64,000 bases of DNA from positions 1 to 64,000 of the forward strand of contig NZ_JAGSYI010000002.1 of the NCBI RefSeq assembly GCF_025685625.1, written 5' to 3'. The position numbers were made by a program, and so were the translations under genes. Positions 1 to 17,800 of this stretch are shown here, piece after piece; positions within the stretch are counted from its first letter, which is position 1, and each line of letters starts with the position of its first letter. The notes beneath the pieces were generated by a model. It was given only the letters and a program-made list of their open reading frames with translations, was not told the DNA's origin and did no database searches. The stretch is from Acidicapsa acidisoli. GTDB taxonomy: Bacteria > Acidobacteriota > Terriglobia > Terriglobales > Acidobacteriaceae.

Positions 1-853
1 CGGTTGGATGTGATGGACGCGGTTTGCTCATACCTGCGTTGATGCCTGATTCGATGGTTTGCCTTGCAGTCGCTTCGCCATCTTTCGCAATGTAGCCGTT
101 TGCGATGGATGCTTCCCATAGAGCATTTGCAACCCTGTTTGGATCGATCCATGCAGCCATTGTGCCTAGCGAGTGGGCAGCGTTGTTGAGGGCATGATTC
201 CGGCCTGAGCCTTCACCCATCACGGAGAGCTTGGCAACCTCATCTTCTAGCGCGGCCTCTGCATAGTTCCGCTCTGCATCCGTTCCTGTCAGCGTTACAG
301 GCTCACTCGCGGCCTCTGGTGGTGCTGCCGAACGTTTCTCCCTGAGTAGTCGCGCCAGAGGCTCAGGCAGGCTGGGAATTGCGTCCCATGAGCCTGCCAT
401 CAGCCGGTAGCTCCTGCCGTCTGGCAACACAGCGCCCGGTGCAACGCAGTAGCCGCCAACGCCGCGCACGTCGATACCATCGGGCAGGTTCCCGCGAGAA
501 TTGCTGTAAGGGGCATCGGTTCGGAAATAGAAGTGTCTGCCGCCAGAAGGGGTTTCAACCGTGAGCGCGGTTGAAACGTCGATACCTTGGGTAGCGCAGA
601 GAGCTTCAAAGGCAGCTACGCCGTCCACTCCACTAGGTTTGCGGTCTGCGTCAATGACTACCAGACCGTTTGCGCCAACGGGGATCGCTGGCAGAGCGTC
701 CGTCTTCCAGGTTGCCCCAATCATGAATTGGCTGGAGGTTGCCTTTTGCTCCCACGCGGCGACCATCGGCGTTTTATCTGGATTGGCTGGAAATACGGAT
801 ATACCGTGCCTCGCTGCGCTCAATGCTGCATCTTTATTTGAGGAGTTCGGCAC
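1..853 (-). CDS. Primase-polymerase (prim-pol) N-terminal part, truncated by the window edge
   Basis: This is a phage/plasmid-type bifunctional DNA primase-polymerase (AEP superfamily) that would prime replication of the mobile element. I translated it by hand. It opens with GTG at 853..851, which overlaps the TAG stop of the upstream gene by one base, and stays open to position 1 with no stop, so the C-terminal part lies outside the window. The N-terminus reads like the usual prim-pol opening (ALSAARHGISVFPANPDKTP). The catalytic acidic pair is in VVIDADRKPSG (about 560..630 region). The GGRHFYF motif follows at about 520, then GIDVRGVGGYCVAPGA at about 430..475. A helical segment follows with GEGSGRNHALNNAA. 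The GTG start and the missing end explain why automatic callers may miss it. The family call is confident; whether a helicase domain follows is unknown. Confidence 0.85.
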   Translation of the reverse strand, partial: MPNSSNKDAALSAARHGISVFPANPDKTPMVAAWEQKATSSQFMIGATWKTDALPAIPVGANGLVVIDADRKPSGVDGVAAFEALCATQGIDVSTALTVETPSGGRHFYFRTDAPYSNSRGNLPDGIDVRGVGGYCVAPGAVLPDGRSYRLMAGSWDAIPSLPEPLARLLREKRSAAPPEAASEPVTLTGTDAERNYAEAALEDEVAKLSVMGEGSGRNHALNNAAHSLGTMAAWIDPNRVANALWEASIANGYIAKDGEATARQTIESGINAGMSKPRPSHPT

Positions 854-1332
854 TAATTCACCATTCGCTTTCTGGCTTTATCGCTCTTGCGTACACGTTG
901 ATCGCTTACGTATCCGTACCATTCGCTCAGATTCAACCCTTGACGCAGACACATTTGCAGGAAGACTTCGGCAACGCCTTGATCGGTTGCTACATCTGGC
1001 CCATTCCAAAAAGCATGGCCTCGCCATACCGGAAGGATCATGTGATGACCGGGGGATGTCTGCGTTACCAGTACCCAAAGCATCGGCCTTGCTTGGAACT
1101 CAGCTTCAGACGTGAATATGTCGAACTCATTCCGCAATGCAGGCCGGATATACATTCGCTGCGTTGGATAGGTAGCGAAGAAGAGGCCATCAGCCCCGTA
1201 GACCATAGGGTTATGCTGTTCGGGAGTAGGCTTTGAGAAACGCGCAAGCATCAGAGTGCCAATGGTGGGGCAAGCCGTTTCATAAAACTCATCATCCAAT
1301 CCATGCTTAACAAGATTCGGATTTAGCGGCAT
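853..1332 (-). CDS. Hypothetical protein of the mobile element (159 aa)
   Basis: I do not recognise this protein. It is soluble, has no signal peptide or membrane segment, and is rich in aromatic residues (for example GADGLFFATYPTQRMY and VWRGHAFWNGPD), with a basic C-terminus (DQRVRKSDKARKRMVN). Its ATG at 1332 lies inside the end of the AlpA-like gene (10-base overlap), and its stop overlaps the prim-pol GTG, so the three genes are almost certainly one transcript. By position it should be an accessory to replication or regulation of the element, but this is inference only. Confidence 0.75.
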   Translation of the reverse strand: MPLNPNLVKHGLDDEFYETACPTIGTLMLARFSKPTPEQHNPMVYGADGLFFATYPTQRMYIRPALRNEFDIFTSEAEFQARPMLWVLVTQTSPGHHMILPVWRGHAFWNGPDVATDQGVAEVFLQMCLRQGLNLSEWYGYVSDQRVRKSDKARKRMVN

Positions 1333-1544
1333 GATGCCTCCTTAGACACAGATGATTGCTTAAGTTGTTGCTGCGGTAAGTTAGTTGCCCATTGATTTAG
1401 GCTTGCTGCGTCGATGAGTCTGCGACGACCTGCCTTAACAGACTTAATACTGCCATCTGCCAAGCGCTGATACAGAAAGGATCGGCTCAGGCCAGTGCGG
1501 GAGATGGCCTGCGGAATGGTCATAAGTAAGGCTGAATTGTCCAC
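1323..1544 (-). CDS. AlpA/excisionase-like HTH DNA-binding protein (73 aa)
   Basis: This is a small winged-HTH protein of the excisionase/AlpA (HTH_17) type. The signature is TIPQAISRTGLSRSFLYQRL followed by ADGSIKSVKAGRRRLID, which is the classic helix-turn-helix plus wing that reads 'choose a kinase of DNA target, then insert residues'. Such proteins act as excisionases or as activators at the head of satellite and prophage operons. It is the first gene of a minus-strand operon leading into the 159-aa gene and the prim-pol. The start ATG at 1544 faces a divergent plus-strand gene across a 134-bp control region. The family is clear; whether it drives excision or transcription cannot be decided here. 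Confidence 0.85.
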   Translation of the reverse strand: MDNSALLMTIPQAISRTGLSRSFLYQRLADGSIKSVKAGRRRLIDAASLNQWATNLPQQQLKQSSVSKEASCR

Positions 1545-1678
1545 GGTTGTCCTCTTGCGTTCGGAGTAAGTGTCGAGTTACAGAAAAAACGCTATCATAT
1601 AAATTGCGTGTTGACACTCGAAACATTCGCATTTACGCTGGCCACTGATTCACAGACTTTCACAACTTACGAGGGGTT
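1545..1678. promoter_or_regulatory. Divergent control region of the mobile element
   Basis: This is the gap between the AlpA-like operon (minus) and the ribbon-helix-helix gene (plus). A plus-strand TTGACA box at 1611..1616 is followed after 17 bases by a weak TACGCT at 1634..1639. On the minus strand TATGAT (complement of 1594..1599) is a good -10 candidate, with no clear -35. A GAGGGG ribosome site at 1671..1676 serves the plus gene. The region is AT-rich at 1580..1605. The promoter reading is inference from consensus matches. Confidence 0.5.
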
Positions 1679-2116
1679 ATGGCAAAGATAGGTAAAGGCG
1701 CAGCGCGCACTGAAACGGTTGGAGTCCGTGTTGATCCTAAAGTTCGTTATCTCGCAGAGATCGCAGCGAGAGAGCAGCAGCGCAGCGTTTCGAGTTTTAT
1801 CGAGTGGGCAATCCGCAAGATTCTTACCGAAGGATCGCCAAGCATTGAACCAGGTACAGGACCAATGATCGATCCAACGAAACAACCCAAGCCGATGTGG
1901 GGCGATGGATTGTGGGACGTTGACGAAGCAGACCGATTTTTCCTGCTCGCCACAATGCGAAGCGACCTGCTCACAATCTCTGAGCAAAGGCTTTGGAAGT
2001 TGTTCCATCTTGGCAATCCCACTCAAGACAAGAACATCGCAACATTCCGTGAGTTCTGGAATTCGCCTTCAATTGACACGACGCATCTGAAGGCTGAAAG
2101 CATGGAGGTCGCTTAA
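1679..2116 (+). CDS. Ribbon-helix-helix-like DNA-binding protein (145 aa)
   Basis: The first 50 residues look like a ribbon-helix-helix fold: a short strand (TETVGVRVDPKVRYLAEIAA) followed by a helix pair ending in SVSSFIEWAIRKIL. This is the arrangement seen in CopG/Arc-like repressors, which dimerise through the strand to bind DNA. The remaining 95 residues are a non-basic tail with many tryptophans (PKPMWGDGLWDVDEADRFF) that I do not recognise. It sits divergent from the AlpA-like operon and two bases upstream of the scaffold-like gene, so it may repress the shared control region. The start is supported by GAGGGG immediately upstream. Confidence 0.7.
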   Translation: MAKIGKGAARTETVGVRVDPKVRYLAEIAAREQQRSVSSFIEWAIRKILTEGSPSIEPGTGPMIDPTKQPKPMWGDGLWDVDEADRFFLLATMRSDLLTISEQRLWKLFHLGNPTQDKNIATFREFWNSPSIDTTHLKAESMEVA

Positions 2117-2118
2117 CC

Positions 2119-2658
2119 ATGCCCGAACCAATCGAACAACCTACTAGCGGCCAACTTGACGCAGCAAGCGAATTGCTCAAACTCCAGAAGGTTCACGCCG
2201 AAGTGTTGGGTAAGCGCAATAAAGACAAAGCGCGAATCGCAGAGCTTGAAACTACTTTGACCGAAACGCAGGGTAGAGTGACGGCAGCGGAAGCGAGAGC
2301 GCACGAATTGGAAATTGGCCAACCGCTGAAGCAACTTGCCAAGTCAATGTCCGATGTACCGGATTATTTCTTGCAGACGCTACAGGCTCAGTTTCAAATC
2401 CAGGCGAAGGATGGAGAGCTTTCCCTATTGACCAAAGACGGGAAGCCGGTCATGGATGCAGAGGGTAAGGCTGTTGGCTGCGAGTCTTCAGAACTGGCAA
2501 AGTATCTGACGGAGAACGAGCCGGACAGCGAGCGAACCAAAGTGTTTCGCAAGATAGTTACAGTTTCGCGAGCATCGGGCGCGGCAAGCGGTTCGGGTCA
2601 ACGTCGCACGGAAGCTTCAGGATCGTTCAATCTTGGCGATAACTTCGGTTTGCGTTAG
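2119..2658 (+). CDS. Coiled-coil protein, possible capsid scaffold (179 aa)
   Basis: Residues about 10..75 form a charged heptad-like coiled coil (KVHAEVLGKRNKDKARIAEL onward). A compact middle follows with LTKDGKPVMDAEGKAVG, then a low-complexity Gly/Ser C-terminus (ASGAASGSGQRR) that ends in DNFGLR. A coiled coil plus a 'dGkpv..dGk' block plus a disordered Gly/Ser tail is typical of putative scaffolding proteins found next to phage major capsid genes. Here the capsid gene is 0.7 kb away on the other strand. The gene starts two bases after the preceding stop, with GGAGG inside that gene as ribosome site, and is closed by a strong terminator. The scaffold role is inference; a plain element-specific structural protein is the alternative. 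Confidence 0.6.
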   Translation: MPEPIEQPTSGQLDAASELLKLQKVHAEVLGKRNKDKARIAELETTLTETQGRVTAAEARAHELEIGQPLKQLAKSMSDVPDYFLQTLQAQFQIQAKDGELSLLTKDGKPVMDAEGKAVGCESSELAKYLTENEPDSERTKVFRKIVTVSRASGAASGSGQRRTEASGSFNLGDNFGLR

Positions 2659-2674
2659 TCCAGGTCAAAGAAAG

Positions 2675-2706
2675 GGGTTGCTTCCCATGTGGAGGCAACC
2701 CTTTTT
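2675..2706 (+). terminator. Rho-independent terminator after the scaffold-like gene
   Basis: An 11-bp stem (2675..2685 with 2691..2701, one T-G pair) closes a five-base CATGT loop and is followed by five T residues at 2702..2706. It lies 17 bases after the stop of the plus-strand gene. It also stands between convergent transcripts, so it may limit read-through from the TerS-like gene. Confidence 0.85.
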
Positions 2707-2719
2707 GCTGCGCCTTAGA

Positions 2720-3286
2720 TTAACGTTGGGGCTTCCAGCTAGGTGGACCGAAGTACGCTGGGGAGCTTGCTACTGCCTCCGGCTCCGTCTGGTATACCTG
2801 AGGCTCGTAGATCGACGCAGACGCAACCTTAGCGCCTTCTAGCTGTCTTGGTGCGGCCTCTGGTGCTGTTAAAGCACGTTGCTGTGCAAGTGCCTTAGCT
2901 GCCCATTCTTCATCCGTGCCGTGATCCTTGATGACGAGTACATTGGTGGGAGCTACGGCAACCCCAACGTTGACATTCGTATTCGGTGAATCGTTCTCTC
3001 TGTACCCATGGCGCGATTTCAAAATGAAGAACGCATTCACGTTTGCAGGCTTGTTCATGACCGCGGATTGAACGACCAGGGCATGTAACGCTTGCCGCTC
3101 TGCTTCGCGTCCAATCTCGAAAGCCTCTTGGATCGCTTCGTCTTCATCGCACCAGCGCTTGAACGTTTCACGCGATACGCCGAAATGCTTTGCTATGCCG
3201 ACGATTGCATGACCTTGTGCGGCCATCGCTTCGATGGTTGTTGCTGCCCCTGCTGGTGGATGCTTTCTAGGTGCGCCCATGTTCAA
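2720..3286 (-). CDS. TerS-like DNA-packaging protein (188 aa)
   Basis: The N-terminus holds a helix-turn-helix (AAQGHAIVGIAKHFGVSRET then FKRWCDEDEAIQEAF) followed by a long helix and the block NKPANVNAFFILKSRHGYREN. This order, a recruiting HTH and then an oligomerisation helix ending in a 'fiLK.r.gyre' block, is characteristic of small terminase-like phage proteins that select DNA for packaging. The last 70 residues are Ala/Pro/Gln-rich and probably disordered. It is downstream of the capsid gene on the same strand. No large terminase is visible, so a helper phage motor would be needed. It could instead be an unrelated HTH regulator. Confidence 0.65.
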   Translation of the reverse strand: MNMGAPRKHPPAGAATTIEAMAAQGHAIVGIAKHFGVSRETFKRWCDEDEAIQEAFEIGREAERQALHALVVQSAVMNKPANVNAFFILKSRHGYRENDSPNTNVNVGVAVAPTNVLVIKDHGTDEEWAAKALAQQRALTAPEAAPRQLEGAKVASASIYEPQVYQTEPEAVASSPAYFGPPSWKPQR

Positions 3287-3302
3287 TGCTCCAATAAGAG
3301 GC

Positions 3303-3333
3303 GAGGGGCATCGCTTCAGACTGCCCCTCTTTT
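3303..3333. terminator. Hairpin between the capsid and TerS-like genes
   Basis: Perfect 8-bp arms GAGGGGCA (3303..3310) and TGCCCCTC (3322..3329) enclose an 11-base loop. On the plus strand it is followed by TTTT, a terminator-like shape, although no plus-strand gene ends here. On the minus strand it lies between the capsid stop and the TerS-like start, so it may instead attenuate or protect the capsid mRNA. Confidence 0.5.
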
Positions 3334-3349
3334 CCCTGCTGGGGGAACT

Positions 3350-4384
3350 TTACTTGCTGATGAGGAACGCAATCGGAATTGACTTGCGCTGCGACACGGC
3401 TCGCGTCCAATGGGCAGGATTGGAAAGATCGGCCATGACCGGAGAAGGTCCGGCAACTGCATTCGCGCCAGTGCCATCATTCCAACTCATCCCAAGGGGA
3501 TGCAGCGCGAGATTCCAGCGAGAGAACAATGCAGTCTCGCCCGCGCCGTTTCCAAAGCTCGGATACCGATAGACTTCGGTTCCGAAGCCGGATACAGGCT
3601 CGCTCAAACCGAATCCTACGGCACCAGGGCCAAACAAGATCGTGACATAGACTCCAGCGGTCGCCGTGGTCAAGTTGTCGTCCACGATTACGGCCATGCC
3701 TTTGTAAGTCGGAATGACCATGCTGTTATCGGACGGCTTGAAATACTGAATTTCGTCGTTCTTCAGCATCTCTCCGTAGATGTACGAATGGCAGGCGATT
3801 GCCTTCATGTCTGAAAGGCGGTCGCCAATGGTCAAAGCTGTGTTGATGACTGCGACACCATTGAACGTGTTTGCTGGAACAGTGACATTCGTTCCAGGCA
3901 CGGTCACGGTTCCGGTTGCTCCACTCACATCGTTGACCATATCGCTGTTGTTGTTGGCGACGTTCGAATAGAGCACGCCAAGCAACGAAGCAATGAGCCG
4001 GAATTCCCATTGACGCGCCCAATAGGCGCTAACCCTGCTCTGTACCCGTTCCAGGGCATTGCTTCCGCTCAGATCGTTGGCAAGGTCCATTTGCGCCCAC
4101 GATTGATTGACGAAGGACTTACGAACGACCAAGTCTCGCGCAGTGACCTTTAGAGGGGTTGCGATGTCTGCGGGATTGTCGGTTCCGATGTTGGCTTCCG
4201 TGTCGGGTAAATCCTGCCAGAACGGTACGGTAAAGCTCGGCGCACCGGCCTGAAGGTACTGTTGCATCAGGTTGTTGCGCACCAGGACACCGCTCTGGAA
4301 GAGCGCGGTGCTGACAAGGGAATTCTCAGCGACGTATGCGCTGAAGATTTCAGGAACAATAATGTCTGCAATTTGTGTGGGCAT
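3350..4384 (-). CDS. Phage major capsid protein (344 aa)
   Basis: The protein would form the capsid shell. The N-terminus (DIIVPEIFSAYVAENSL) and the sequence of a long strand-rich body with TPLKVTARDLVVRKSFVNQS, the region about IYGEMLKNDEIQYFKPSDNS and then VYVTILFGPGAVGFG match the common HK97-fold coat proteins annotated as major capsid proteins in tailed phages. The length of 344 aa is typical. There is no N-terminal delta/scaffold domain and no protease gene nearby, which fits a separate scaffold such as the 2119 gene. The start ATG at 4384 lies at the head of the transcript that continues into the TerS-like gene. The fold is inferred from sequence pattern only. Confidence 0.85.
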   Translation of the reverse strand: MPTQIADIIVPEIFSAYVAENSLVSTALFQSGVLVRNNLMQQYLQAGAPSFTVPFWQDLPDTEANIGTDNPADIATPLKVTARDLVVRKSFVNQSWAQMDLANDLSGSNALERVQSRVSAYWARQWEFRLIASLLGVLYSNVANNNSDMVNDVSGATGTVTVPGTNVTVPANTFNGVAVINTALTIGDRLSDMKAIACHSYIYGEMLKNDEIQYFKPSDNSMVIPTYKGMAVIVDDNLTTATAGVYVTILFGPGAVGFGLSEPVSGFGTEVYRYPSFGNGAGETALFSRWNLALHPLGMSWNDGTGANAVAGPSPVMADLSNPAHWTRAVSQRKSIPIAFLISK

Positions 4385-4450
4385 GGGTCTAAACCTCGAA
4401 TCAAAGTTGGATTTCAGCTTGATTCAGGCTTAGGCGACTGCTTAGACCCG

Positions 4451-4494
4451 CCCCGACTGGGGGTGAAACATGATGCAGATGCCCGACTGGGCAT
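4451..4494. other. Two tandem hairpins with identical loops upstream of the capsid gene
   Basis: CCCC-GACT-GGGG at 4451..4462 and ATGCCC-GACT-GGGCAT at 4479..4494 are perfect inverted repeats with the same four-base loop (AGTC on the minus strand). They lie 67 to 110 bases upstream of the capsid start, so they would sit in its leader RNA or promoter. An operator, a leader structure or a protein-binding RNA element are all possible. Confidence 0.6.
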
Positions 4495-4581
4495 AAGTTA
4501 CCTTAGCGCGGAATTCGCCAGCGTGCAAGTCATTTAACTACACATGCATGGGTGGACAAGTGTGGACTATTTGAATGAAGG

Positions 4582-5076
4582 TTAGAGTTCGTACCATTCC
4601 ATTGGAATGATGATTCTCGAAGATTGATAGCGTTGAGACTGAATAAATTTCTTGATGTGTTCAAAGGTACTTGGATCGGTCAACATTTTTGGGATTTCAC
4701 CTCTTGTATAGCTGTCCTTAACTATATGATCCAATATGTTGTCAAGATAAGTCTTCATCAACTCCGTGGATACGCCTGAAAGTGTTTGCTCGTTCTGAAT
4801 TGCACATGCAATTTCAATCAGATTCATCAATTCGGACAAATCTGCGAATCGATTGTCCTGACTTGCCGGATTTTGTTCAGTTGAGCTAATTGAAGAGATG
4901 AGCCGCTGCCACGCTTCACGGAACGCTTCATTCAAGGTCACCAGAGTGGCGACTGAAGAATTCTTGTCTGACTTTCGGATTGCGCGGATTGCAAAGTAAA
5001 CGGAGAGCAAAGCTGCGATGAGCGACAATACTGCGACGACAAAGGACCAAGCTGCTATCCAATCGGCGGTCTGCAT
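4582..5076 (-). CDS. Membrane-anchored protein of unknown function (164 aa)
   Basis: I do not recognise a family. A single strongly hydrophobic segment at about residues 9..33 (WSFVVAVLSLIAALLSVYFA) is followed by basic residues (IRAIRKSDK), placing the remaining 130 residues in the cytoplasm. This soluble part is helical, with AFREAWQRLISSI and LMNLIEIACAI. The layout, a one-pass anchor plus a helical cytosolic domain in an AT-rich accessory region of a mobile element, is common among cargo and defence proteins, but no catalytic motif is visible. It is the third gene of a three-gene minus-strand cluster, four bases after the preceding stop. Confidence 0.75.
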   Translation of the reverse strand: MQTADWIAAWSFVVAVLSLIAALLSVYFAIRAIRKSDKNSSVATLVTLNEAFREAWQRLISSISSTEQNPASQDNRFADLSELMNLIEIACAIQNEQTLSGVSTELMKTYLDNILDHIVKDSYTRGEIPKMLTDPSTFEHIKKFIQSQRYQSSRIIIPMEWYEL

Positions 5077-5079
5077 GTG

Positions 5080-5286
5080 CTATTTCTGCTGGTTCGATTG
5101 CGATGCGCCTTGTCCGCTCCCCGCACTGGATTGATTAGTCGAACTCTGGTTTGGAGTGGTTTGCACAGGTTGAATCTGCTGCTTCAGGTGAGAGGTAGTT
5201 AGTGATTTCTTCACTAGGTCTAAATGGTTAACTGTTAAGCTGTCATTCGCGTGACCAGTGTACTTTGGATTTGTTTCTTCAGTCAT
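5080..5286 (-). CDS. Small repeat-motif protein, paralogue of the next gene (68 aa)
   Basis: I do not recognise a family. The product has two copies of a short motif, DSLTVNHLDLV and KSLTTSHLKQQI, followed by a Gln/Ser/Asn-rich disordered tail (SSTNQSSAGSGQGASQSNQQ). The second motif matches ESLTTAFLKQNL in the upstream 95-aa protein, so the two are related. It ends three bases before the start of the membrane-anchored protein, so all three genes probably form one operon. An antisense or non-coding explanation is unlikely because the motif is shared. Confidence 0.65.
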   Translation of the reverse strand: MTEETNPKYTGHANDSLTVNHLDLVKKSLTTSHLKQQIQPVQTTPNQSSTNQSSAGSGQGASQSNQQK

Positions 5287-5309
5287 TTCTGCCCTCCATA
5301 GTTAGTCAG

Positions 5310-5597
5310 TCATTTTTTGGCGCTGTTCTCGTTCGCCTGTTGCTTAGGAGTGTCACGGTGATGTAGCGATGAGGCATTTTGATTGTTTTGGACCTCAATG
5401 ACGGCAGCACGCTCCAGGTTTTGCTTGAGAAACGCGGTGGTTAAAGATTCTGCCGCCAAGACCTTTCCGCCATTCGAGTTAGCTTTCAATGCATCCTTCA
5501 AATGCTCAGTGGTTCGGCTACCATTTTTGGGAATCGGTTTTACTGTATTTCTGTTATCGGTCACTCTTGGTCCCTTACTGAAGAAGGATTCTAACAA
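5310..5597 (-). CDS. Small repeat-motif protein (95 aa)
   Basis: I do not recognise a family. Two copies of the motif seen in the next gene appear here: SRTTEHLKDAL and ESLTTAFLKQNL, separated by about 20 residues. Basic N-terminal residues precede them and a polar Asn/Gln/Lys tail follows. There is no signal peptide or membrane helix. It is the first gene of the three-gene cluster 5597 to 4582. The paired amphipathic helices suggest a protein-protein interaction role, which is inference. Confidence 0.65.
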   Translation of the reverse strand: MLESFFSKGPRVTDNRNTVKPIPKNGSRTTEHLKDALKANSNGGKVLAAESLTTAFLKQNLERAAVIEVQNNQNASSLHHRDTPKQQANENSAKK

Positions 5598-5696
5598 ATG
5601 CTAGCATGGCACGATATGAGAGGAAGCCCCAAATTTGTGGATGGACCACTTTAATGAATATGGGCTATCCCAACGTGCTTTTGATTCTCAAATACT

Positions 5697-6098
5697 TCAC
5701 TTCGGCGATTCATCCTCGCTTGGATTCCCATTTGGATCGCTCCTAAGTCGAAGTGTGATTGTGCCCTTAACTGAGTGGAGGCATTCTCGACCCTTATTGC
5801 GTCCCTTTGGGCTCCCCTCGTCACCTCGACAATTGAGCCAGATATCCCTTGTGTTCTCGCCCGAATAAAGCATCATGTTCACTTCGCGGTCGAATTCATA
5901 CCCTCCGCGATTGCATCTTGGATTGGAGCATCTCATCTGTCCGCCCTCGATTCTGAGACTCCAAACACCGGACTTCGGATTGTTTCCGAAATCTGACTCA
6001 GTGAACTTGATGATTGCGTCTTCCAATTGTGGATATGCGGACTCGAATTTGGTTGTCAGTCCTAACCATCTGTTGGATCGATCAAGCGGCTCACCCAT
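5697..6098 (-). CDS. Putative zinc-binding hypothetical protein (133 aa)
   Basis: I do not recognise a family. Residues about 55..60 contain CSNPRC, and WLNC and GREC follow further on, which could form a four-cysteine zinc site. The middle (GGYEFDREVNMMLYSGE) looks like a small beta domain, and the C-terminus ends in a beta strand TITLRLR followed by a polar tail. It is separated from the 5597 cluster by 99 bases and from the palindrome-rich edge region by 40 bases. It has the lower GC of the island. Confidence 0.6.
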   Translation of the reverse strand: MGEPLDRSNRWLGLTTKFESAYPQLEDAIIKFTESDFGNNPKSGVWSLRIEGGQMRCSNPRCNRGGYEFDREVNMMLYSGENTRDIWLNCRGDEGSPKGRNKGRECLHSVKGTITLRLRSDPNGNPSEDESPK

Positions 6099-6138: not shown

Positions 6139-6273
6139 TGAATGTCTACGGACATTCAATTCGCTATTTAGGCAGGGCATTGAATGCTCTATTGGGGCAT
6201 TACCCCGATTTCCATTTTGAATCCCCAAACGTGACACTTCGGTTCAACGCTTCGGAATTGGGGTATACCCCAA
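6139..6273. repeat. Cluster of four palindromes at the island edge
   Basis: Four perfect inverted repeats lie in 135 bases: TGAATGTC-TACG-GACATTCA (6139..6158), GCATT-G-AATGC (6177..6187), GGGG-CATTA-CCCC (6194..6206) and the 16-base palindrome TTGGGGTATACCCCAA (6258..6273). They lie just upstream of the 133-aa gene. They may be operators, initiator-binding repeats or an integration/replication site. The stretch 6099..6775 has no gene I can support. Confidence 0.7.
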
Positions 6274-6553
6274 CTTCTAAATTTGACCGAGATTGACGGG
6301 GATGGGGGCGCGGCCTCGCACGGATCGCAAAATTGGGTGGGTGGGGGGTGCTCAGTCCAGGCTTTCAACCGTACCGGCTGCGCCAACGGAGTGAGCGCAA
6401 AAAAGCACCGCCGACAAAATTATTTTTCGGTGGTAATCGAAAAAAGCGAGTCACCGTGGCGAGCATGGTGCTATAAATGGTGCTAGTTTTCTCATGATGC
6501 TATTTAAGTCGTTTAGAATCAATTAAGTGTGAGTCCCTCACTGCCAAAATAGT

Positions 6554-14874: not shown

Positions 14875-17800
14875 TTAGAATGCTTGTCCGATGCTGATAA
14901 AGTATTGTGTCGAACTGACTCCTGCTACTGGAGTACTAAGATTGTGGCCTATGTCGATTCGAACCGGACCGACAGGCGTGGCATAGCGCAAGCCCACGCC
15001 TACATTGTTCGAGTAGAGAGATGTGAAGTCGTGAAAGCCAATGATGGGAAACACATTGCCCCCGTCATAGAATGCAACCATGCCGAGTCCCTTTTTGAAG
15101 GGTAGCGGAATACGCGCCTCCGAATTGATGAGCAGTAGCTCGTTGCCGCCACTTGGAACCTGAATGAATACATTGCAGCCAGTCGCACCGTTGGGGCAGA
15201 CCTCCACCGGTCGCTGTGGTCCTGCGCCATCCAGTGGGAAGCCACGCAAGGAGTTACCGCCGCCACTGAAGAATGCTTCGCTTAAGGGAACGCGGCTATT
15301 CGCGAAGGGTTGCGCCAGGCCGACACGAAGGCTGTTTGCAAATACGATGTTATGGATGCCAGTCTTGTAATACGCAAATTGCCCAGTCAACTTGGCGAAG
15401 TCAACGCTCGATCCAAGCTTTGTGGTGTTGAAATCCAACTCGAGGGTATGCAACATCCCCTTGTGAGCATCCAAGGGATTGTCGCGCGTATCATGCGTTA
15501 GGTTTGCAGAAATTGTAGAGAGTCTAACATTGCGATCTTGCGGTAAAACAAGGCCTTGAATCAAGACCCTGGTAAGGTTGGTCTTGCTTAAGCTGTAACG
15601 CAAGAAGAGATTCGTCGTCTTCGCCTTATCCAGGTCTCGCTGTAATTGGAATGTACCTGCCTCCTGCTGTGAAGAATAAATCGGGTTTTCTTCATTCTTC
15701 TCGGCAGTGACGGAACTGGTAGCTCGCCAGGGCGACCATCGAAAGTTCGGATCAATATAGTAGACGGCGGCTCGCTGATCCAGGCGGCCTGCGAATCCTG
15801 TAAACGAAAACGTCTCGCCCTTGCCGCGAACATTGTTCCGCGTAAATTGGAAAGTTCCTCGCGGGCCGTAAAAAGTCTGCTGGCTCGATGTGAAACTGGT
15901 GGGTAAACCTACGGGCGGCAATCCTGGCAGAGTTACTGTGCCGCTTGGTACGCTCCCACCTCGGTTGATGACTTCAAAGCCGAAGCCGTAGGTGATTTGG
16001 TTCTTTTTCGCCTCATGGAGTTTTACCAGTACGTCTTCTTTCGTCTGGGTAGTAATCTGCCGCTTTGGGTCAACCTCTGCCCAATCGAATACGCCTGTGT
16101 GGTTATAGAGCCGACTCTCCGATGTCAATAATTGCGTCTCAGTCAGCGGAGTTCCTGGATGGATAGAGGAGACGTCTTCATCGATGAGCCGTTGCTTCGT
16201 GCTCGAACGACCCAGTGTGACGATGTCTCCGGCAAATACCTGCGGCCCCTCATAGATGTGATAGACCACGTTGATGTGGTGAGGATCATCTTTTGAGACC
16301 ACGGTCGCGGTCTGACGGAAGCTTGAGGTCAGATATCCGGCCTTGAGATATTGAGCGACAATACTGGCTCTATCGGCTTCGACGAGTGCCTGCGAATAGG
16401 GTTTGCCGGGTCCAAGTTTCAATCCATTTGGCGCATACTTGTTTTGAGGAAATGTATCTGCCCCTTCAATTTGCAGTGAGTTCACAATATCGCGGGGACC
16501 CTCCTGCACCTGAAACGAAACCTTGATGTCTCCGCCTTGATTGTCTACTTTAGAGACTACCTTCGCACTGCTGTAACCATGCGACTGGTAAACCGCCTGC
16601 AGATTCTTTACGCTATCGCGCACAAGCTTGGCGCTGAATTTTCCAGGCGAGAAAAGATGCTTCTTTTCAACGGCGAGATGAGGTATCAGATTATCCGAGG
16701 AAAGATGCGTATTTCCTGTGAGTGTTACCGCTGTCACTTTGTGCTTCTTCTCTTTTGAGATCGTGTAGAGGATCGTATCGCCTGTCGTACCTTGCGTTGA
16801 TTGAGCATCCACGTTTGCATCGAAGTAGCCCTTCGCCTGAAAGTACGACACGAGAGCCTGCCGGCCCTCCTGCACCGATTCGTCATCCACGTCGATCCCC
16901 TGGTAGAAAGGCAGCAACGATTTGCGCGTCCAACTGAACAGGTGGGCGCCTTTTATTTGGACATGGACGAGCGGACCAGTTGTCACTTGCAGGTGAATGT
17001 CGGCGCGATTGGTATCGGCATGATACTCAGCACCCTGGAGTTTGACCTGCGCGGCTAGCCGATCTTCCTTAGCTAGTTGAGCCTTTAAGTAGTTTGTCGC
17101 TCTGGTGAGAGTGGAACGATGGTATGCCTTTCCGGGCCGAATCGCCGCGCCGCGAGCGCGTGCCAGGAATGTCTGCAAGGCATGGTTCAACTTTGCTGTG
17201 TCCTGCGGACTGGCATCTGAAATGACGACATTTCCGAACCTTGCTTTCTGCTTGAGGGAAACGTGAAACAAGACATTCGCGAGACCATGCACTTGATCCA
17301 CTTGCGTTTCGGGTCGAACTTCGGCTTGAAAATAACCTTCCTGCTGGAAGAATGTCAGCAGGCTCTGTCGATCGCGCTCTACGTCATCCGCGTTGTAAGG
17401 CACCTGTGGTGGATAGTTTGCGACCTGCACCAGGCGCGAATATGCAAATCGTTCAGCCCCCGGAAACTTGAAGACTCCGAACCAAACCGCTGGCTCCAAA
17501 ATCATCAAGACACGAACCCCATCCGCTTCGGGATCTACCTGTAGCTGAACTTCTGTGAATTTTCCAGTTGCCTTTAAGGCGGCCACTGTCTGGTCGACCT
17601 TTGCCTGGGAAAACGGTTCTCCCGAGTGTTGCACGAAGAGGGAGGTGAATTCCGAGGATTTGAGTTCGGGATGCCCAGCGATTTCCACTGCCGTGACGTT
17701 TTGCCCCTCAAAGGAGGACAAGATTTGAGCCGTCTGTGGGGAGGTTTTAGGGGCTTGATCTGTAGCTTGATCTGCCGCAGGCGCTGCGCCCTGCTGTGCA

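What the first reader, a model, noticed from the sequence alone, without database searches (positions are those of the whole stretch)
1..6098. Capsid-encoding satellite-like island without packaging motor or tail genes
Seen: AlpA-like HTH, prim-pol, ribbon-helix-helix protein, scaffold-like coiled coil, TerS-like protein and a major capsid protein within 4.4 kb, with four unknown small genes. No large terminase, portal, protease or tail gene is present in the visible part. Known: capsid-encoding phage-inducible islands carry AlpA, a primase and their own capsid genes while borrowing tails and sometimes motors. Inference: this may be a new acidobacterial satellite with an unusually small capsid module, or a decayed prophage.
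Basis: partly seen in the sequence, partly recalled or inferred. Interest (0 to 1): 0.78.

Follow-up and report, generated by a model that had tools for sequence, protein, structure and literature searches.

The report
Phage satellite lacking portal and motor
This is one of two copies, in a soil bacterium, of a roughly 10 kb phage parasite that brings its own virus-shell genes but no DNA-entry portal, and that seems to have replaced its packaging motor by a docking tail that would let it use another phage's motor.

Summary
The window starts inside the element because the assembly breaks at a two-copy primase gene. Its other end lies on contig C7 (integrase, tRNA-Val), with a 15 bp repeat at window 6531-6545. 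A sister island sits at tRNA-Glu (C6/C8, 47 bp repeat). Six repeat-bounded Acidobacteriaceae islands (10.0-11.2 kb) share integrase, prim-pol/helicase, scaffold, capsid protein and TerS, and also carry TerL. I found no portal, protease or tail gene in any of these eight.

The capsid protein is of SPP1 gp13 type. Sixteen such proteins from loci without a detected portal, some proteobacterial, form one clade (100/100) apart from 15 phage homologues. Capsid dN/dS between the two in-genome copies is 0.045, which speaks against decay.

Four TerL-less islands (one decayed) carry a chimeric TerS: satellite head, Lokivirus-type tail. In 13 of 13 viral contigs fetched with that tail, a Loki-type TerL follows directly. 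I infer a satellite that builds its shell on a helper's portal and recruits a helper's TerL. No helper was found and nothing was tested in the laboratory. It is a new variant of capsid-encoding satellites, distinct from cf-PICIs.

The parts
2..853 (-). prim-pol, N-terminal 284 residues; the gene continues over the contig break, its end is on C7:5-187
   Evidence: PF09250 E 3.3e-30; continuation inferred from the L039 homologue
853..1332 (-). orf159, conserved protein of unknown function between AlpA and prim-pol
   Evidence: no Pfam or PHROG match; homologues in the islands; dN/dS 0.039
1323..1544 (-). AlpA-like HTH regulator / excisionase
   Evidence: PF12728 E 2.2e-7; phrog_66 E 6.6e-7
1679..2116 (+). 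probable ribbon-helix-helix protein
   Evidence: 45% to the L039 protein, which matches an Arc-like repressor family E 3.4e-4
2119..2658 (+). head scaffolding protein
   Evidence: phrog_206 E 8.5e-9
2659..2719 (.). 61 bp junction between scaffold and TerS, where TerL lies in TerL-bearing islands such as L040
   Evidence: whole-genome search finds only a 30% partial TerL match elsewhere
2720..3286 (-). chimeric small terminase: head (residues 1-97) of satellite type, tail (about residues 98-142) of Lokivirus type
3350..4384 (-). major capsid protein, SPP1 gp13 type
   Evidence: phrog_247 E 4e-84; SPP1 coat protein E 5e-38
4582..5076 (-). accessory small protein with one N-terminal hydrophobic stretch (by reading)
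   Evidence: 40% homologue in L051; similar ORF in L114 by reading
5080..5286 (-). accessory ORF, 68 aa
   Evidence: not family-scanned
5310..5597 (-). accessory ORF, 95 aa, no significant match
5697..6098 (-). accessory ORF, 133 aa, no significant match
6531..6545 (.). 15 bp attachment repeat, identical to the 3' end of tRNA-Val(TAC) on C7 (2357-2371); right end of the island

Best explanation
The window holds most of a tRNA-integrated phage satellite of about 9.8 kb (estimate). It carries its own tyrosine integrase (on C7), an AlpA-like regulator and a prim-pol/helicase (shown as genes), so it probably excises and replicates by itself. It encodes an SPP1-type coat protein with its scaffold, enough to make a shell (inferred from SPP1). 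No portal was found, so the DNA-entry vertex, and with it the tail, must come from a helper phage (inferred). This copy, its sister and the other TerL-less members have a TerS whose satellite-type head presumably recognises satellite DNA and whose Loki-type tail presumably recruits a helper's large terminase (fusion shown, function inferred). Other members of the family keep their own TerL.
For: Two islands in this genome at two tRNA genes with two different integrases. Six assembled, repeat-bounded relatives of 10.0-11.2 kb with the same core. No frame matching four reference portals; no sense-strand unassigned frame of portal size. SPP1-type coat; in SPP1, coat plus scaffold assemble normal and smaller procapsids without portal (PMC6316719, passage). 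Sixteen coat proteins in one clade, 100/100. dN/dS 0.045 coat, 0.141 scaffold, 0.153 TerS. TerS head 45/94 and tail 4/32 identical to L039; tail 18/43 and 22/43 to Shy and Pavpe01, heads 16/94. Tail directly before a Loki-type TerL in 13 of 13 viral contigs. Tail in 4 of 4 TerL-less and 0 of 10 TerL-bearing islands.
Against: No helper: no Loki-type TerL in this genome; 9 of 398 family genomes matched at 28-34% identity, five of these being the satellites' own TerL. The 83-24 portal found nothing in 9 satellite genomes, a weak test. Lokivirus Shy itself has a coat protein and scaffold without BLASTP similarity to the satellite's; only 3 of the 13 tail-bearing contigs show a clear coat protein of the satellite family. 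The coat tree allows one or two origins of the TerL-less state, so the 4-versus-10 contrast is not made of independent cases. The TerL-less genomes other than this one were seen only on the held stretch. About 930 bp of prim-pol could not be read, so its integrity is unknown. Small size and packaging are untested.
Confidence: 0.63

Rival explanations
1. Decayed prophage remnant that lost portal, TerL and tail genes and is no longer mobile.
For: Many family genomes hold only fragments or broken copies of the coat gene, and G657 holds a decayed TerL-less island. TerL is absent here.
Against: Same compact architecture and tRNA-end repeats in several genera, purifying selection since the two copies split, two integration sites with two integrases, coat clade separate from phages.
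Confidence: 0.13
2. Capsid-size redirector like Ccm of SaPIbov5: the island's coat protein mixes into helper capsids to make them small, rather than forming its own shell.
For: SaPIbov5, PmCI172 and EcCICFT073 encode a capsid homologue without their own portal (PMC6893505; PMC6092414; passages).
Against: The island also has a scaffold gene under constraint (dN/dS 0.141), and relatives have their own TerS and TerL. No helper with a close coat protein was found in the genomes sampled. Coexistence of both modes is not excluded.
Confidence: 0.14
3. Self-sufficient small phage whose portal and connector are too divergent to recognise.
For: Several small ORFs have no assigned function, and distant members hold single head genes: a head-morphogenesis fragment in L040 and a Neck1 connector in L090.
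Against: Largest unassigned sense-strand frame in the assembled islands is 323 aa (L042); the 361 aa (L040) and 358 aa (L041) frames lie across coat or prim-pol genes on the other strand. The accessory ORFs differ between islands. No tail genes and too little space for them.
Confidence: 0.04
4. The TerS tail is only a widespread terminase tail and says nothing about the motor used; packaging is by some other route.
For: Tail function is inferred. TerL-less cases are few and related.
Against: Head and tail have clearly different nearest relatives, and all 13 viral contigs found with the tail have one TerL type beside it.
Confidence: 0.06

Closest known systems
Capsid-forming PICIs (cf-PICIs)
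   Same: Integrated island with its own capsid gene, terminase gene(s), AlpA-like regulator and replication gene, presumed to take tails from helpers.
   Different: cf-PICIs are described as also encoding head maturation protease, portal, head-tail connectors and HNH endonuclease (PMC10690885, passage), mean size 14 kb (PMC10803314, passage). Here no portal, protease or connector was found in the assembled islands, size is 10-11 kb, and the coat is SPP1-type. The original cf-PICI paper is not held.
SaPIbov5 (ccm) and capsid-homologue PICIs such as PmCI172
   Same: A capsid homologue without a portal (PMC6893505; PMC6092414).
   Different: Ccm works together with the helper coat protein; here a scaffold and, in relatives, a full terminase come with the coat gene.
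SaPI-type TerS redirection
   Same: A satellite TerS used with a helper's TerL (PMC10690885, passage).
   Different: Here the TerS is a head-tail chimera and the satellite lineage otherwise has its own TerL.
SPP1 and related phages (Steinhofvirus, Guernseyvirinae, Queuovirinae)
   Same: Coat protein family and a scaffold gene; SPP1 has no internal protease (PMC6813328).
   Different: The phages compared encode portal and tail; the satellite coat proteins are a separate clade.
Streptomyces satellites MulchRoom and MiniFlayer
   Same: Satellites with terminase, capsid and scaffold genes.
   Different: They encode a portal and have no obvious replicase (PMC10690885, passages).

Membership tests
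cf-PICI | own major capsid protein | tested here: met
cf-PICI | own portal protein | tested here: not met
   about 930 bp of the window island unread
cf-PICI | own head maturation protease | tested here: not met
   none recognised in the window genes or the scanned relatives' genes
cf-PICI | head-tail connectors | tested here: not met
   none in the scanned island genes; a Neck1 protein in the distant L090
cf-PICI | own small and large terminase | tested here: not met
   window: TerS only; relatives L039-L043, L116: both
cf-PICI | HNH endonuclease | tested here: inconclusive
   no family match in the genes scanned
cf-PICI | needs the helper only for tails | not testable with these tools
   experiment needed
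PICI (classical) | integrase, replication module and master regulator | tested here: met
   criteria from PMC6092414
PICI (classical) | absence of phage structural genes | tested here: not met
   coat and scaffold present
PICI (classical) | attachment sites never used by prophages | not tested
   sites are tRNA-Val and tRNA-Glu ends
PICI (classical) | induction by a helper phage | not testable with these tools
   no helper known
SPP1-type capsid family | full-length homology of the coat protein to SPP1 gp13 | tested here: met
   residues 3-335 aligned, E 5e-38; profile E 3e-63
Ccm-type capsid redirector | co-assembly with helper coat protein | not testable with these tools
   experiment needed

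The most novel reading that the evidence does not exclude
An old satellite lineage, seen in Acidobacteriota and in alpha- and betaproteobacteria, lives on a shell-only kit (SPP1-type coat protein plus scaffold) and borrows the portal itself from helper phages. Its packaging part is exchangeable, and in one branch the motor gene was dropped while TerS was re-tailed to dock on a helper's large terminase.
Probability: 0.5. Interest if true: 0.85.

Novelty: new variant of a known kind. Interest (0 to 1): 0.76.

Why it matters
It would fill the gap between satellites that steal or remodel whole heads and those that steal only tails: shell from the satellite, portal from the helper. Because the portal ensures correct head size in SPP1, this makes the question of what sets capsid size testable in a natural system. 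The chimeric TerS is a natural domain swap that could show which part chooses the DNA and which part chooses the motor. It also gives candidate satellites for Acidobacteriota, where little is known about viruses.

Tried and rejected
Decayed prophage: not favoured, on dN/dS, shared architecture and clade structure. Hidden portal: no suitable frame. TerL elsewhere in the genome: one 30% partial match on C3, in a stretch with its own portal-like gene. Helper search: the 83-24 portal gave 0 of 9 satellite genomes, which shows little; Shy TerL gave 9 of 398 family genomes at 28-34%, five of them the satellites' own TerL, and none in this genome. Lokivirus Shy as source of the head genes: coat protein and scaffold show no meaningful BLASTP similarity. 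Structure predictions for coat protein and orf159 were of low confidence (mean pLDDT 47 and 41); the Foldseek match of the coat model to SPP1 and to phage SH-Ab15497 agrees with the sequence result but adds little. A 159 bp repeat near the island ends was considered as packaging or origin site: no unusual fold (z 1.10) and not found in the other islands compared. Accessory genes against PADLOC: no convincing defence system, apart from a protease-like gene on C6. The first viral-contig scan with the window coat protein alone found nothing; the alignment query found 7 loci.

Literature: searches with cf-PICI terms, Acidobacteria, SatelliteFinder, portal/capsid/primase, tycheposon/VEIME, scaffold/AlpA, Rhodobacter, Terriglobus/Edaphobacter and SPP1 listed nothing that I recognised, from titles, abstract starts and the passages read, as describing this family. 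That covers this open library only, and the lists were capped.

Rows left out of counts. TerL/TerS-tail contrast: L046 (decayed; TerS and TerL fragments, TerS of the TerL-bearing type), L083 and L084 (another TerL type, TerS not recognised), L085 and L090 (no TerS or TerL seen), L044, L045, L047-L051, L087 (coat fragments), and the weak tail match in G259. Capsid tree: fragments and L093 (near copy of L092) left out; L092 and L094 included without a group; L114 only as a partial row in the second tree.
Full report
What the sequence shows. The window is the first 64 kb of contig C2 of a 7.1 Mb genome in 18 contigs. Between AlpA and prim-pol lies a conserved unknown protein, here called orf159.

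Why the left side is missing. The same module occurs at the very end of contig C6 (88-93% identical DNA). C2 and C6 break at the same base inside prim-pol. Contigs C7 and C8 both begin inside the end of prim-pol and are 95% identical over their first 913 bases. The assembly thus broke at a two-copy repeat. C6 and C8 share a 47 bp direct repeat at a tRNA-Glu 3' end, and C7 and C2 a 15 bp repeat at a tRNA-Val 3' end. Integrase genes lie on C7 (931-2187) and C8 (922-2211); the C8 one is 38% identical to the L039 integrase, while the C7 one was not found with that query. So there are two islands at two tRNA genes, each about 9.8 kb by estimate: assembled parts plus roughly 930 bp of prim-pol inferred from the L039 homologue. 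That middle piece could not be read; six small contigs read as N, one of them 939 bases long. The gene next to tRNA-Val on C7 was found in 12 of 14 relatives of the genus, and a tRNA-Val(TAC) lies near it in 5 of those 12 held stretches of at most 3.9 kb. That flank is therefore old chromosome; the other flank was not matched and no complete empty site was shown.

Relatives. The window coat protein matches 14 of 300 family genomes, this one included, many as fragments; its profile matches 8 of 399 genomes of the class, this one included (the samples overlap). Contigs of the same length in a named collection identify four of the loci: Terriglobus roseus DSM 18391, Edaphobacter lichenicola, a Terriglobus MAG and an Acidobacteriaceae MAG, so the family is Acidobacteriaceae. 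Six islands were assembled from repeat to repeat: L039 10,530 bp, L040 10,180, L041 11,202, L042 10,395, L043 10,047, L116 10,263 (repeats of 44-69 bp, 90-100% identical; lengths). A tRNA gene was called at one end in four of them (Val in L039 and L041, Glu in L043 and L116); in L040 and L042 the repeat only resembles a tRNA end. In L042 the integrase is in two pieces at opposite ends. All six have integrase, prim-pol/helicase, coat protein, TerS and TerL by similarity. AlpA-like, RHH, scaffold and orf159 genes are in the same places, but a few are called only by position, reading or a weak alignment (RHH and orf159 in L043, AlpA in L039, AlpA, RHH and scaffold in L116). Accessory genes differ from island to island. 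A simple pattern found Walker A, Walker B and three acidic nuclease motifs in 8 of 10 TerL proteins; L116 and L089 lacked part of it.

No portal found. Of all stop-to-stop frames of at least 250 aa in the six islands and in the assembled parts of the two in this genome, those matching no integrase, prim-pol, TerL or coat protein were 262 aa (L039), 250 and 361 (L040), 358 and 252 (L041), 323 (L042) and 342 (C6); none matched four reference portals or a tape-measure protein. The 361, 358 and 250 (L040) aa frames lie across coat or prim-pol genes on the other strand; the 342 aa frame on C6 is protease-like. PHROG scans of larger unknown genes gave no portal. Against a fully clean picture, L040 has a fragment similar to a head-morphogenesis protein and the distant contig L090 a Neck1 connector.

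The capsid. The coat protein aligns with SPP1 gp13 over residues 3-335 (E 5e-38). In the phage collection it matches 722 records, the best being Achromobacter phages (Steinhofvirus) at about 39%. A tree of 33 coat proteins puts all 16 from loci without a detected portal in one clade (100/100; 100% of 200 bootstrap trees), apart from all 15 phage ones; two viral-contig rows were left without a group. The clade includes a Polaromonas MAG (L082), two Rhodobacterales (L083, L084) and four IMG/VR contigs (L088-L091). Several of those contigs are incomplete, so their lack of a portal is less certain than in the assembled islands. [quoted passage not shown] SPP1 has no internal protease (PMC6813328, passages). 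A coat-plus-scaffold kit is thus enough for a shell but not for a DNA-filled head.

Selection. Between the two in-genome copies dN/dS is 0.045 for the coat protein, 0.153 TerS, 0.141 scaffold, 0.039 orf159, 0.137 prim-pol N-terminus and 0.327 AlpA, at dS between 0.10 and 0.94. The copies have diverged under constraint, both lack TerL, and they sit at two sites with two integrases.

The chimeric TerS. Aligned with nine TerS from TerL-bearing loci, the window protein agrees in the head (38-49 of 94-95 identical, 45/94 with L039) but not after the conserved HGYRE motif (3-5 of 32). Its tail instead matches TerS tails of Lokivirus Shy (18/43) and phage Pavpe01 (22/43), whose heads do not match (16/94 each); 83-24 TerS matches in neither part (21/95, 3/38) (first seen). 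A profile of the tail confirmed 13 viral contigs. In all 13 a TerL 58-65% identical to Shy TerL follows directly; a portal is seen in 12 (the thirteenth contig ends inside TerL), and a clear coat protein of the satellite family, at 36-39%, in 3. Among 398 family genomes the tail was found in this one (twice), in G657, and weakly in G259 in a much longer frame. G657 (L114) is a decayed island of the same kind without TerL on the held stretch. A fourth case, with an open TerS gene, is Edaphobacter sp. RYN_7 (L078), where TerS with this tail is followed at once by the scaffold gene on the other strand. So 4 of 4 TerL-less islands have the tail and 0 of 10 TerL-bearing loci do (L116 by reading; Fisher p 0.001), with the warning that the coat tree needs two changes and allows one, so these are not independent cases.

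Mechanism. Shown: islands with own shell, replication and integration genes, no detected portal, and a TerS that joins a satellite head to a tail linked elsewhere to one TerL type. Inferred: the helper gives portal and tail; the TerS head binds satellite DNA; the tail brings the helper's TerL. That TerS generally has a DNA-binding head and a TerL-contacting end is recalled, not taken from a call. The label P4-type for the C7 integrase is also by reading and recall.

What is known. cf-PICIs are described as encoding portal, protease and connectors besides capsid and terminase (PMC10690885, passages). SaPIbov5 and PmCI172 encode a capsid homologue without a portal (PMC6893505; PMC6092414; passages). 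This family lies between the two. A survey of acidobacterial genomes lists T. roseus KBS 63 with one prophage, a terminase and a portal but no capsid gene (PMC5900883, table passage), so the satellite's coat protein seems not to have been recognised there; that KBS 63 and DSM 18391 are the same strain is recalled. The paper on Tunturi viruses of Acidobacteriota does not contain the word satellite (PMC11924767, find).

Limits. No helper, no particle and no excision data. The literature search covers one open library.

Noticed in passing
window 6240-6398; C6:261854-262015; C2:1407933-1408042: A 159 bp repeat just inside the end of both islands, with a third partial copy far away on C2; absent from the other islands compared, no unusual fold. 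Could be an island-end element or a host repeat.
   Followed up: partly
L042:6066-6635 and 15123-15872: The integrase gene is in two pieces in opposite orientation at the two ends of the island (MAG contig), which suggests an inversion or an assembly error.
   Followed up: no
L068:7929-12860 (contig C3, about 102.9-107.9 kb): A TerL-like gene followed by a portal-like gene (by reading) in this genome, probably a prophage or remnant; no coat gene was recognised in the stretch listed.
   Followed up: no
L067:2356-3618 (contig C8): A second tyrosine-integrase-like gene directly beyond the attachment repeat of the sister island, perhaps a neighbouring element at the same tRNA.
   Followed up: no
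L004:7217-8221 (contig C6): The sister island carries a protease-like gene at the accessory position, matching the protease part of the PADLOC model RT-Protease_XI, E 1.2e-12.
   Followed up: partly
L083:5962-13182 and L084:3887-10128: Rhodobacterales loci with primase, another TerL type, scaffold and satellite-type coat protein; L083 also has a resolvase-like recombinase by reading.
   Followed up: partly
L040:10273-10836; L090:8037-8531: Single extra head genes in family members: a head-morphogenesis (MuF-like) fragment and a Neck1 connector.
   Followed up: partly
L041:3726-3788: A third copy of the tRNA-Val end about 0.9 kb outside the island, as if a second element had been inserted beside it.
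   Followed up: no
window 853-1332: orf159: present in the islands examined (21-34% identity between species), dN/dS 0.039, yet no Pfam, PHROG or PDB match; possibly a hallmark gene of the family.
   Followed up: partly
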